Assembly: GCF_026240635.1 (NCBI RefSeq)
Contig: NZ_CP110848.1
Location: 2,871,741 to 2,935,740, forward strand
Reading direction: 5' to 3'
DNA length: 64,000 bases
Origin: Trichothermofontia sichuanensis B231
Lineage (GTDB): Bacteria > Cyanobacteriota > Cyanobacteriia > B231
The first letter of the stretch is position 1; every line of letters begins with the position of its first letter. The position numbers and the translations under genes were made by a program. Shown one piece after another: positions 20,132 to 24,954 of this stretch. The notes beneath the pieces were generated by a model. It worked only from the letters and a program-made list of their open reading frames with translations, ran no database searches and was not told the origin of the DNA.

Positions 20132-20431
20132 TTAGTACAGGGCTTCTTCTTGGTGGGTGATAATGGTGCAGTCAGACGTTGGGTAAGCCACACAGGTTAG
20201 AACAAAGCCAGCAGCAATTTGATCATCATCCAGGAAGGATTGATCGGATTGATCAACTGTCCCTTCGGTGAGCTTTCCTGCACAAGTTGAGCAGGCACCC
20301 GCACGACAGGAGTAGGGAAGATCCAGACCCTGCTCTTCTGCCGCATCCAGGATGTAGGTATCGTCATCAACGTCGATCGTTGTGTTCAGACCTTCAGCCT
20401 CGTTAATTAGGGTGACCTTGTAAGTTGCCAT
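20132..20431 (-). CDS. petF: Plant-type [2Fe-2S] ferredoxin
   Basis: From ATG 20431 (GAGAGGA upstream) this gives the classic 99-residue photosynthetic ferredoxin [14 protein letters not shown]. Cluster cysteines are C42, C47, C50 and C80 in [15 protein letters not shown] and VLTCVAYP. It accepts electrons from photosystem I and passes them to FNR and other enzymes. A long untranslated or promoter region lies upstream (20432-21128), as is usual for the highly expressed copy. Confidence 0.97.
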
Positions 20432-21128
20432 GTACTTAATTCCTCTCAAGATTAAGATGAAAGCGGCGTCTCAAGCTGAACGGTAGCCGTGTCATGGGGT
20501 CTAGGTAACCCATCCTGGCAACAGGCTGACAACTGCCGCCCGCGTCAGCTTCAACTCTGATACTACGGGAAAAAAACCGTCTTGCAACCACAGATTACGG
20601 GTGAACCCTGTGGCAATTAGTAATAAAATTTAATGAGCTATTAAAAATAAGCAAATCTTATAAAAATAGCGAGAGTGTCTGGATTACAGTTGTCTGTTGG
20701 GACCAATCGCGCTATGGATAGCTTGGGCTAACTCAGATGTCCCAACGTTTGCTCCAATCCCCAAATCCCTGTGTTTCCTGAATTTCCATCCCTAGAGTTT
20801 GGACAATATCTATGCTTATCCTTGGGACGATCGCCCCCAATGAACGGTAGCAAAGATTGGCTAGATGGGATCCATTAGGTTTTATCTATTAGCTAACCTT
20901 ATGTTAACGATGGAGATCAGACGCCGCTCAACCGCCCGCATCTGCGGTGGGGGTCTAGCCCGGTTGGTATCGAAGTCGTACCCACTGGGGGAGTGATGGC
21001 AGCAAGGATACCACTAGGGCTAGGTTGGGCAAGAACGGCGTAGGATAGGCGTGCATACCCGTCAGTCTGTGATCAATCACATGTGATCAATTAAATTTAA
21101 TTGCCAACAGCAGCTTAGGATAGGTCAG
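20432..21128. other. Long gap between petF and bvdR, both promoters
   Basis: No coding frame is supported. AT-rich stretches near 20620-20665 are likely promoter sequence for petF. At the other end are two palindromes immediately upstream of bvdR (listed separately). A small RNA is possible but not shown. Confidence 0.4.
21076..21103. promoter_or_regulatory. Two adjacent palindromes upstream of bvdR
   Basis: ATCACATGTGAT (21076-21087) and CAATTAAATTTAATTG (21088-21103) are perfect palindromes lying end to end, 26 bases upstream of the bvdR start. TGATCA also flanks the first. They are candidates for a dimeric regulator; they do not match a TGTGA-N6-TCACA CRP site because the spacing differs. 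Confidence 0.5.
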
Positions 21129-22760: not shown

Positions 22761-22862
22761 CCCCCCCGCTCAACGCATCCGATCGCCACCCCCAATCCTC
22801 ATCCCCACCCCTCTCCCTGCCTAGCACCGAGTCAGGTTGCTGGGCTGGTTTAATCGTTTCAA

Positions 22863-22911
22863 TTTATTGAGAACCTTATTTTTATTGAGAAATTTATTGA
22901 GAATCTTTCTT
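22863..22911. promoter_or_regulatory. Three Fur-box-like sites upstream of fur
   Basis: TTTATTGAGAA occurs at 22863, 22881 and 22893. In reverse complement each resembles the cyanobacterial FurA box I recall as AAATAAATTCTCAATAAAT. They lie 70-120 bases upstream of the Fur-family gene start, consistent with autoregulation. Confidence 0.75.
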
Positions 22912-22979: not shown

Positions 22980-23447
22980 ATGGAAAACACCCAATCTAAC
23001 GGGGAACGCTTTAAGGCAAGGTTGCATCAGGAAGGCTTGCGCTTCACCCGCCAGCGCCAGAAGATTTTGGACCTGTTCCAAGACTTAGCCGCAGGCCAAC
23101 ACCTCAGCGCCGAGGAAATCCAGCAAACCCTGGCCCAGCAAGGGGAGCGGATCAGTCTCTCGACGGTCTACCGCACCCTGCACGTGATGGCAAGGGTCAA
23201 ACTGCTGCGGGAACTGGAACTAGCGGAGGGCAAAAAGCTGTATGAGTTGAGCGCTCCTTTCCTGAGCCAGCACCATCATCTGGTGTGTGTCCAGTGTGGC
23301 GCAGTTGTTGAGTTTGAGGCTGACAAAATCCGCCAGGTTGGGGGGCACCAGTCTGCGGAACGGGGCTATGCCCTGCTGGATTGTCAATTTACGCTCTATG
23401 GCATCTGTCCGCAATGTCAGCGGCAGACCGTTCACAGTGAAGAATGA
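22980..23447 (+). CDS. fur: Fur-family metal-responsive repressor (FurA-like)
   Basis: This 155-residue protein has the winged-helix DNA-binding half with RFTRQRQKILDLFQ and ISLSTVYRTLHVMARVKLL, then the dimerisation/metal half with the HHHLVCVQCG motif. Cysteine pairs 103/106 and 143/146 form the expected structural zinc site. LLRELELAEGKKLYEL is close to cyanobacterial FurA. Fur represses iron-acquisition genes with Fe(II). PerR or Zur identity cannot be fully excluded, but the Fur boxes upstream and in front of the next gene support FurA. Confidence 0.88.
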   Translation: MENTQSNGERFKARLHQEGLRFTRQRQKILDLFQDLAAGQHLSAEEIQQTLAQQGERISLSTVYRTLHVMARVKLLRELELAEGKKLYELSAPFLSQHHHLVCVQCGAVVEFEADKIRQVGGHQSAERGYALLDCQFTLYGICPQCQRQTVHSEE

Positions 23448-23512
23448 CCCTAGTGACCTGTCAAACCGTCGCTTTAGGCATGACAGACCATGCAATCGTT
23501 TCAGCGGCATCA

Positions 23513-23592
23513 TTTATTGAGAATAATTTTTACTAAGTTGACAAATATAATAGGCTTGTCCTTATACTTAATAAAAGTAATTCTCATTAAGG
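23513..23592 (+). promoter_or_regulatory. Promoter flanked by two Fur-box-like sites
   Basis: TTTATTGAGAATAATTTTT (23513-23531) is followed by TTGACA (23538-23543), then TATACT (23563-23568) as a -10 with a 19-base spacer. A reverse-orientation box, AAAGTAATTCTCATTAAGG (23574-23592), overlaps the ribosome site. By my count 14 of 19 positions of the second box match the recalled FurA consensus. Confidence 0.65.
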
Positions 23593-23601
23593 AGTGGTGT
23601 T

Positions 23602-24363
23602 GTGGGAAATAAGGTTCTCTGGCTGAATTTGAGTCGTCACCTTGGTTGCTTACATCGCCCTCTCTTGCGGGAGTTGGCCTACTGGACGCCGGTATTCCGG
23701 TGGGACTATGTACAGAGTCTGGATGAGTCGGCCTCGCTAGAGGTGCCCTTGGCGTTGCTGGATCGGTTTCTGCGTGATCAGGCGCAACCAGTTCATTTAG
23801 CAGGGCATGGCTTAAGTGGGGCATTAGGGTTGCTCTATGCTCGTCGCTATCCAGACCGAGTGAAATCGCTGACGCTGTTAGGGGTAGGCCCGCAACCAGC
23901 CCACTGCTGGCAGTCTGAGTATTACGCCCATCGTCGCCTGTTACGTTGCGATCGTGCTTTTGTCTTATCGGTGATGGTGTCCCAGTTATTTGGGGAAGCC
24001 CTGCGAGCGATCGGTCGGGAGTTGGTGGGGCGGCTTCAGCGGGATCTCGATGAAAGCCCTTCCCCCCACTCGTTATTCCAGCGCGGGGAAATTGAGGCAG
24101 GTGGTGCGCCGGTACCGTTACTGATCTGTGGCAGTGAGGATGATGCGATTGTGGGGCCAGATGTGTTAAGCCAGTGGCAATCCTACCTGGTTCGTGATCG
24201 TGGGGATACCCTTTGGTACTGTCCCAGTGGTCGACATTTCTTCCACTATGGTCAGGCAAAAGCGGTGAGCCGGGTGATGGTGCAGTGGTGGCAACAGCAT
24301 GAGCCTAGGGTGACTGCAACGCGGCCTGAGTTGTCTGCATTACCGGCGATCGCGGAAGTCTGA
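23602..24363 (+). CDS. Alpha/beta hydrolase-like protein, probably Fur-regulated
   Basis: A GTG start with AAGGAG seven bases upstream gives 253 residues. The alpha/beta hydrolase pattern is visible in HLAGHGLSGALGLLYARRYP, PLLICGSEDDAIVG (acid) and PSGRHFFHYG (histidine). The nucleophile elbow reads G68-H-G-L-S-G where GHSxGG is canonical: the usual Ser position (70) is Gly and a Ser sits at 72. Either the elbow is shifted or the protein is not a serine hydrolase. Fur-box-like sites surround its promoter, so expression in low iron is expected. Some iron-stress operons carry a hydrolase gene called isiC; I do not assign that name. The substrate is unknown. Confidence 0.75.
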   Translation: MGNKVLWLNLSRHLGCLHRPLLRELAYWTPVFRWDYVQSLDESASLEVPLALLDRFLRDQAQPVHLAGHGLSGALGLLYARRYPDRVKSLTLLGVGPQPAHCWQSEYYAHRRLLRCDRAFVLSVMVSQLFGEALRAIGRELVGRLQRDLDESPSPHSLFQRGEIEAGGAPVPLLICGSEDDAIVGPDVLSQWQSYLVRDRGDTLWYCPSGRHFFHYGQAKAVSRVMVQWWQQHEPRVTATRPELSALPAIAEV

Positions 24364-24711
24364 GACAGCTATCTTGCATTGAGGTGCGTCCTTCCCATGC
24401 CGTTCGTAAAGTTTTCCAACAATTAACTAAAAGCGATTTGCAGCAAGTTTCTGGTAGCCATTCAGAGAGAGAGTAGGACGCAGAAGGTCTCGATATCTAT
24501 CGAGCTTAGGGGCGTAAGATTTCCTGGAACAGTGAGTTTGGATCAATCACTGCAAGGTACTTCTAATTACTTCTAAAGCCAGGCATCTTGGGGTGCTTTG
24601 GACATCGTGGTACGCTAAAAGCGTGACCCGTTTGGTTGAGATATCTCTGTTGAGAGATATCGAAATTTCAGTCTATCCCATTCAGTAATGATGTCTGTAA
24701 GGAGACCCATT
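24364..24711. other. Gap with a 9-bp perfect hairpin
   Basis: No gene is seen. The strongest feature is the hairpin at 24640-24661 just upstream of the tetracysteine gene. Confidence 0.5.
24640..24661. promoter_or_regulatory. Perfect inverted repeat upstream of the tetracysteine gene
   Basis: GATATCTCT (24640-24648) and AGAGATATC (24653-24661) pair exactly around GTTG. The centre lies about 60 bases upstream of the start codon, so it could be an operator or a 5' UTR hairpin. Confidence 0.55.
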
Positions 24712-24954
24712 ATGGCTGAAGCAACCGTTGAAAAAATCGCCGCCCCTAGTGCGCTTTCTCTAACCACAAATTGTACTGCTTGTTTAACCCGTGATTGTCC
24801 CCTCGCAGGTCGTGTCGATTCCCCGGTCAGTTTGTGCAGCCGCTATCGGCAAGTTAATTGTTATCTGTGTACGCAGGCGGATTGCGCTTTGACGGGCACT
24901 CTCAATTCACCGGTACTGGCCTGTAGCCAATTCCAGCCGATCGCGATCGCTTGA
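24712..24954 (+). CDS. Small protein with two identical-spacing four-cysteine repeats
   Basis: From ATG 24712 (AAGGAG at 24699-24704) this gives 80 residues. Cysteines are at 21, 24, 29, 42 and at 50, 53, 58, 71: each half has C-x2-C-x4-C-x12-C, with shared DCxLxG and SPVxxCS phrasing and a repeat period of 29. This strongly suggests an internal duplication and a metal site, zinc or an iron-sulfur cluster, in each half. There is no signal peptide or membrane helix. It is not a recognised metallothionein or ferredoxin. It lies 350 bases downstream of the Fur-box-controlled hydrolase gene, behind its own hairpin. I do not recognise the family. Confidence 0.75.
   Translation: MAEATVEKIAAPSALSLTTNCTACLTRDCPLAGRVDSPVSLCSRYRQVNCYLCTQADCALTGTLNSPVLACSQFQPIAIA

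What the first reader, a model, noticed from the sequence alone, without database searches (positions are those of the whole stretch)
23513..24363. Hydrolase-like gene with an altered nucleophile elbow under Fur-box-like control
The promoter (TTGACA, TATACT) is bracketed by two Fur-box-like sites, one over the ribosome-binding region. The encoded alpha/beta hydrolase reads GHGLSG where GHSxGG is expected, while acid and His motifs remain. An iron-regulated, possibly non-catalytic hydrolase-fold protein would be new, perhaps in siderophore or pigment handling.
Basis: partly seen in the sequence, partly recalled or inferred. Interest (0 to 1): 0.6.

Follow-up and report, generated by a model that had tools for sequence, protein, structure and literature searches.

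The report
Solitary isiC gene under iron repressor
This cyanobacterial gene is isiC, an iron-starvation gene known from other cyanobacteria, standing on its own beside a Fur-type iron regulator; its protein keeps an enzyme fold but many family members, this one included, have lost the key catalytic residue, so it probably does something other than ordinary hydrolysis.

Summary
The published Anabaena FurA consensus has its five best matches in the 64-kb window in two adjacent promoters: that of a FurA paralogue (22980-23447) and that of this gene. The protein reads GHGLSG at the nucleophile elbow, with Asp181 and His212 kept.

The gene is not new. It is isiC, usually the third gene of the iron-stress operon isiA-isiB-isiC. 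Of 109 loci, 64 have isiA and/or isiB just upstream. isiC is already reported as strongly iron-starvation-induced in Synechocystis, function unknown.

What is less expected: (1) this genome has no isiB and no isiA that the searches could find, yet keeps isiC with its own Fur boxes. Elsewhere too, isiC outside the operon tends to carry a Fur box (16 of 35) and isiC behind isiB does not (1 of 56). (2) The canonical catalytic set is not conserved: position 70 is Ser in 52 and Gly in 50 of 102 proteins, the base is His in 66 and Tyr in 36, no member has the oxyanion HG, and only the acid Asp is invariant. Ser72 is not a replacement nucleophile.

Best reading: Fur-repressed, derepressed without iron, probably non-hydrolytic. 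Function remains inferred.

The parts
23602..24363 (+). isiC orthologue, alpha/beta-hydrolase-fold protein, 253 aa, elbow GHGLSG (residues 68-73), Asp181, His212, His215
23538..23568 (+). promoter-like hexamers TTGACA (23538-23543) and TATACT (23563-23568), 19-bp spacer
   Evidence: not listed by the 16-18 bp scan
23512..23532 (.). FurA-box-like site 1 of isiC (19-bp consensus match 23512-23530, 3 mismatches; 7-1-7 match 23518-23532, 2 mismatches)
23572..23592 (.). FurA-box-like site 2 of isiC, from just after the -10 to the ribosome-binding site (7-1-7 match 23572-23586, 3 mismatches; 19-bp match 23574-23592, 5 mismatches)
23590..23594 (+). ribosome-binding site AGGAG
22980..23447 (+). Fur-family regulator, paralogue of the genome's FurA (called Fur2 here)
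   Evidence: PF01475 3.9e-36; four Fur-family genes in the genome; tree
22862..22910 (.). three tandem FurA-box-like sites in the promoter of Fur2 (22862-22880, 22880-22898, 22892-22910)

Best explanation
The gene is a solitary isiC. When iron is plentiful, an iron-loaded Fur protein (FurA, or the neighbouring paralogue Fur2, whose own promoter has three such boxes) binds box 1 upstream of the -35 and box 2 over the transcription start and leader, and blocks transcription; when iron runs out the repressor lets go and IsiC is made (inferred from the sites and from published behaviour of isiC elsewhere). IsiC is an alpha/beta-hydrolase-fold protein that most likely does not act as a classical serine hydrolase: in this copy the nucleophile is Gly and the oxyanion HG is missing. 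I think it works as a binding protein, with conserved aromatic residues, that helps the photosynthetic apparatus endure iron and oxidative stress, and that it can do so without IsiA or flavodoxin, since this genome shows neither. The last sentence is inference.
For: isiC identity: 36-50% identity to proteins that lie in isiA/isiB clusters; 64 of 109 loci have isiA and/or isiB upstream on the same strand within 1.5 kb, including Picosynechococcus sp. PCC 7117. Fur control: best FurA-consensus matches of the window in two adjacent promoters; 19-bp consensus expected 0.01 times, found 2. Conserved across lineages: 7-1-7 Fur box (up to 3 mismatches) in 300 bp upstream of isiC in 16 of 35 loci without isiA, isiB or fur upstream (expected 1.09), 3 of 5 behind fur (expected 0.10; window included), 1 of 56 behind isiB (expected 1.59), and upstream of isiA in 20 of 36 (expected 1.21); with one locus per 70%-identity group and class 9 of 19, 3 of 4 and 0 of 40. 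Triad: Ser/Gly 52/50 at 70, His/Tyr 66/36 at 212, Asp181 102 of 102, Gly68 101, His69 102 and Gly73 102 of 102; at least 17 Ser/Gly and 9 His/Tyr changes on a quick tree built without those columns; no mixed state inside any of 66 groups at 70% identity. HG motif: His at position 9 is not among the residues listed for any of the 102 except at most 2 unlisted rows (register). Fold: pLDDT 92.2, Z about 20 to RsbQ, RutD, D14 and others. No isiA/isiB: with working controls.
Against: 36 of 102 relatives still have Ser70, His212 and Asp181, so hydrolysis may be the ancestral or a current activity in part of the family; an invariant Asp181 and a near-invariant elbow are also what a working enzyme would show. 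Gly70 does not forbid a different chemistry. No ligand or partner is shown. Fur binding and iron response were not measured; which of the two Fur proteins acts is unknown. The 7-1-7 consensus was written down after seeing the window, so the window's own match to it is not independent (the 19-bp consensus is). 19 of 35 solitary isiC loci show no box at that threshold.
Confidence: 0.72

Rival explanations
1. IsiC is a true but unusual hydrolase (or lyase): where Ser70 is lost, Ser72 or a water activated by His212-Asp181 does the chemistry.
For: Asp181 is invariant (102 of 102) and His212 or its neighbour His215 is kept (98 of 102 for 215); 29 of the 50 Gly70 proteins have Ser72.
Against: 21 of the 50 Gly70 proteins have Gly or Ala at 72; Ser72 also occurs next to an intact Ser70 (14 of 52); His212 is Tyr in 20 of the 50 Gly70 proteins; no canonical oxyanion HG.
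Confidence: 0.18
2. The Fur-like boxes serve only the fur paralogue or are AT-rich chance matches; the gene is not iron-controlled.
For: In number, 7-1-7 matches in the window do not exceed chance (3 found, 2.40 expected). The intergenic regions are AT-rich.
Against: Published 19-bp consensus: 2 matches, 0.01 expected, best sites all in the two promoters; boxes recur upstream of solitary isiC in other genomes and not behind isiB.
Confidence: 0.07
3. The gene is a decaying leftover of a lost isiABC operon, kept by chance next to fur.
For: The window protein is divergent (long end branch 1.0) and isiA and isiB are not found. Several conserved residues differ in the window copy (for example P12 to R, H106 to E, D102 to C).
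Against: Open frame intact, all 11 residues that are invariant over the 102 are present, own promoter and two boxes, and isiC without extra PF00421 proteins recurs in 7 of 29 isiC-bearing genomes.
Confidence: 0.08

Closest known systems
IsiC of the isiABC(D) iron-stress operon (Synechocystis sll0249; Synechococcus and Picosynechococcus isiC)
   Same: Sequence family and Fur-type control; the family sits behind isiA and isiB in many genomes. sll0249 is induced about 30-fold without iron (PMC11221513, passage) and is co-transcribed with isiA and isiB (PMC3516471, passage). The link of sll0249 to this family is by gene order and naming; its sequence was not held here.
   Different: Solitary, own promoter with two Fur boxes, next to a FurA paralogue, in a genome without detectable isiA or isiB; Gly70 instead of Ser70 (as in 50 of 102).
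Catalytic alpha/beta hydrolases with a short cap (RsbQ, RutD, meta-cleavage hydrolases, D14/KAI2)
   Same: Fold (Z 19-20 over about 220 residues), elbow turn, acid and base positions.
   Different: 12-17% identity; nucleophile Gly in the window protein, no oxyanion HG, base His not universal in the family.
Non-catalytic alpha/beta-hydrolase-fold proteins such as NDRG (recalled, not tested)
   Same: Fold kept while the nucleophile is lost.
   Different: No relationship shown; the comparison is from memory only.

Membership tests
IsiC (isiABC operon) | Full-length homology to proteins encoded directly behind isiA/isiB | tested here: met
   36-50% identity over nearly full length to relatives; 64 of 109 loci with isiA and/or isiB upstream
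IsiC (isiABC operon) | Lies in an operon with isiA and isiB | tested here: not met
   Neighbours are a fur paralogue and a Cys-rich ORF; no isiB and only PsbB/PsbC-type PF00421 proteins in the genome. This lowers 'isiABC operon', not 'IsiC protein'
IsiC (isiABC operon) | Iron-responsive, Fur-controlled transcription | not testable with these tools
   Sites only
Catalytic serine alpha/beta hydrolase | Alpha/beta hydrolase fold | tested here: met
   PF00561 30.3 bits over cut-off 25.8; model pLDDT 92.2, Z about 20
Catalytic serine alpha/beta hydrolase | Ser/Cys/Asp nucleophile in the elbow | tested here: not met
   Gly70 in the window protein; Gly in 50 of 102 relatives
Catalytic serine alpha/beta hydrolase | Oxyanion HG after the first core strand | tested here: not met
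   Window has N9-L10; position 9 is N 63, S 29, G 3, C 3, T 2 of 102 (two rows not listed); register from the 5mxp alignment
Catalytic serine alpha/beta hydrolase | Acid and base residues | tested here: met
   Asp181 and His212 in the window protein; base not universal in the family
FurA (Fur2, the neighbour) | Fur domain | tested here: met
   PF01475 124.3 bits
FurA (Fur2, the neighbour) | Orthologue of the main FurA clade | tested here: not met
   Separate from the clade holding the genome's other FurA (L032); pairs with a gene of G031 at 95/74
FurA (Fur2, the neighbour) | Fe2+-dependent DNA binding | not testable with these tools
   no binding assay can be run here

The most novel reading that the evidence does not exclude
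IsiC is a family-wide former hydrolase that has become a binding protein of the iron-starvation response: its elbow is held only as a small-residue floor of a ligand pocket (Ser or Gly at 70 in 102 of 102), the ligand perhaps a pigment or lipid, and its job is independent of IsiA and flavodoxin; in the window's lineage it has become the dedicated partner gene of a specialised FurA paralogue.
Probability: 0.35. Interest if true: 0.65.

Novelty: new variant of a known kind. Interest (0 to 1): 0.42.

Why it matters
isiA is one of the best-known iron-starvation genes of cyanobacteria, yet its operon partner isiC has no known function. Showing that the canonical nucleophile, base and oxyanion hole are not conserved tells experimenters not to look only for an esterase, and the genomes that keep isiC without isiA show that the function cannot depend on IsiA alone. 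The contrast between 'behind isiB, no box' and 'alone, own Fur box' is also a natural test that isiC is selected to be iron-controlled.

Tried and rejected
Its patterns do not include the elbow, so the Ser/Gly count was not selected for, but the 80 lean towards A2's close kin.

The first alignment was wrong because loci on the minus strand had not been turned; redone. Of 109 loci used, 3 duplicates, 3 with stops in frame (L067, L080, L119) and the degenerate L030 were left out of the 102-protein counts; L002 and L031 were weak matches and never used. Second copies in G009, G056 and G058 had no locus and were not counted.

Pattern TATTGAGAATNATT with 1 mismatch in the genome was not above its reversed control to speak of (14 v 12); TTATTGAGAAT exact was (10 v 2), but of the 10 only 4 are in fur or isiC promoters and several others lie in coding DNA, so I make no genome-wide regulon claim. 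The 7-1-7 count over the window is not above chance. Ser/Gly and His/Tyr states are not associated with each other (Fisher p 0.41).

Fur-isiC adjacency as a conserved pair: only 4 of 109 loci have fur directly upstream without isiA or isiB (one more has isiA then fur), and the Fur proteins there are not one clade (the one of L116 was not picked up); the association recurs in several genomes but is not a fixed module. In L019 the adjacent fur belongs to the main FurA clade.

isiC against isiA presence (counted by hand; 59 genomes including the window's): with isiC, 22 have more than two PF00421 matches and 7 have two; without isiC, 12 and 18 (Fisher p 0.008). G006 has three matches, one of them a partial frame, and was counted as having more than two.

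Negative literature statement: the searches isiC with isiA and isiB, sll0249, isiC with cyanobacteri and iron, isiABC, isiC with hydrolase, and isiC with isiD gave no paper that discusses the catalytic residues of IsiC, as far as the listings and the passages read show; the 2006 isiABC paper is not held and was seen only as a reference entry.

Full report
What was checked. The window is from a cyanobacterium (a 4.44-Mb single-contig genome, window at 2871741-2935740; 'cyanobacterium' rests on its PsbB/PsbC genes, and on its relatives); the nearest genomes held share only its class. The flagged gene runs 23602-24363 on the plus strand from a GTG with AGGAG in front of it.

Fur sites. I tested two patterns. 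The perfect 7-1-7 palindrome TGAGAATNATTCTCA, which I wrote down after reading the window, has 3 matches at up to 3 mismatches in 64 kb, no more than chance in number (2.40), but all three are in the promoters of the fur paralogue and of this gene. The independent test is the footprint-based FurA consensus of Anabaena, AAATAAATTCTCAATAAAT (PMC4005646, passages): 2 matches at up to 3 mismatches against 0.01 expected. The four best sites in the window start at 22862, 22880, 22892 and 23512; the next, at 23574 with 5 mismatches, ties with four sites elsewhere. Three are in the promoter of the fur paralogue and two bracket the promoter of this gene. The genome's own furA promoter has three related TTCTCAA/TTGAGAA stretches as well.

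What the gene is. The protein has relatives in 28 of the 58 other genomes searched at E 1.1e-30 or below. Clustering the neighbours of 29 loci showed a CP43-like protein (IsiA type) and a flavodoxin upstream again and again (both named by eye from the sequences, then used as queries). Over 109 loci, 28 have isiA and isiB upstream, 28 isiB, 7 isiA, 1 isiA and fur, 4 fur alone, 35 none of these and 6 are too near a contig end (1.5 kb, same strand; the 29 loci have at most 1.5 kb of flank). The family is therefore IsiC. In Synechocystis the gene (sll0249) is co-transcribed with isiA and isiB and among the genes up in all four iron studies compared (PMC3516471, passages), about 30-fold up without iron (PMC11221513, passage), and an isiC mutant is reported as sensitive to oxidative stress (PMC7968678, passage citing others). 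A review lists isiC and isiD as of unknown function (PMC8635728, passage).

A solitary isiC. A flavodoxin of the isiB type is not found in this genome although the same query finds it strongly in 4 of 8 other genomes and partly in a fifth. PF00421 finds only two proteins here, of PsbB and PsbC size, against more than two in 7 of 8 others. Over 59 genomes, 7 of 29 with isiC have only two PF00421 proteins. So isiC survives without isiA in several lineages. Where isiC stands without isiA, isiB or fur in front, 16 of 35 loci carry a 7-1-7 Fur box within 300 bp (expected 1.09); behind isiB 1 of 56 (expected 1.59); behind fur 3 of 5 (expected 0.10, the window included); in front of isiA 20 of 36 (expected 1.21). 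With one locus per 70%-identity group and class the counts are 9 of 19, 0 of 40 and 3 of 4. The 19-bp consensus gives the same picture: 19 of 35, 1 of 56 and 3 of 5 at up to 5 mismatches, expected 2.22, 2.48 and 0.17. IsiC outside the operon is thus under an iron box of its own in many lineages.

The elbow. In 102 distinct proteins position 70 is Ser in 52 and Gly in 50 and nothing else; position 72 is Gly 46, Ser 43, Ala 13; Gly68 101, His69 102, Gly73 102; Asp181 102; position 212 His 66, Tyr 36; His215 98. 21 of 102 have Ser at neither 70 nor 72. Alignments to solved hydrolases place Gly70 at the nucleophile, Asp181 at the acid and His212 at the base, and place N9-L10 at the oxyanion HG; position 9 is Asn in 63 and Ser in 29, never His among the 100 rows listed. 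On a quick tree built without the elbow and base columns (35 of 99 inner branches open) the Ser/Gly state changes at least 17 times and His/Tyr 9 times, yet within groups of more than 70% identity no mixture is seen, so the states are inherited rather than noise. Tyr212 is seen mostly in operon loci (31 of 61) and hardly in solitary ones (1 of 32), which I cannot explain. In place of the catalytic residues the family keeps Trp34, Tyr36, Asp41, Trp103, Tyr107, Tyr108, Trp192, Trp205 and Phe214. This looks like a protein that needs its fold and pocket, not its charge-relay set; whether these aromatics line the pocket was not measured.

The fold. The model of the window protein has mean pLDDT 92.2 (54 sequences). 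Foldseek and VIA-align give ordinary short-cap alpha/beta hydrolases: RsbQ Z 20.2, RutD 20.0, enol-lactonase 19.9, meta-cleavage hydrolase 19.8, D14 19.5, all tied. A shared fold shows no function.

The neighbour. The genome has four Fur-family proteins. By best score and tree two are of Zur and PerR type, one is in the main FurA clade, and the one in the window is outside it, pairing with a gene of G031 (95/74), a genome that also lacks extra PF00421 and isiB-type proteins. The names Zur and PerR are recalled labels. Fur genes also occur 2-3.2 kb from isi genes in L064, L078, L110, L132, L136 and L138.

Verdict. Its novelty is smaller than claimed because the gene is a known iron-stress gene, but two points seem worth a specialist's time: solitary isiC genes with their own Fur boxes in genomes without isiA, and a family in which the catalytic nucleophile and base are not conserved. 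Shown: the sites, the family, the residues, the gene orders. Inferred: repression by Fur, lack of hydrolase activity, a binding role.

Noticed in passing
window 24688-24954 (+): 88-aa Cys-rich ORF downstream of isiC with two similar repeats (NCTACLTRDC...C and NCYLCTQADC...C). No Pfam or NCBIfam match; elsewhere only short weak matches inside mostly long frames, 9 of 59 genomes with a match counting its own or not as the tally does.
   Followed up: partly
L036, G000:C1:663216-663229: The only other perfect TATTGAGAATNATT in the genome lies upstream of a frame that looks like a phosphoketolase (recognised by eye, not tested) and near a uroporphyrinogen-methyltransferase-like frame.
   Followed up: no
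L022, L025, upstream of isiC: The IsiA-like protein upstream of isiC carries a C-terminal stretch that looks like PsaL, a fusion recalled from the literature.
   Followed up: no
L003, L007, L012, L013, L023, L027 and many named loci, downstream of isiC (upstream in L020, L092, L094, L107, L137): A small conserved protein with a hydrophobic start and a C-x2-C...C...C pattern near isiC, probably the gene called isiD; also a Crp/Fnr-like regulator (recognised by eye) downstream in 23 loci.
   Followed up: partly
IsiC position 212 across loci: The base-position Tyr occurs in 31 of 61 operon loci but 1 of 32 solitary loci.
   Followed up: no
window 20132-20449 (-): A [2Fe-2S] ferredoxin-like frame about 2.5 kb from the fur-isiC pair (recognised by eye), of interest because no isiB-type flavodoxin was found in the genome.
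   Followed up: no
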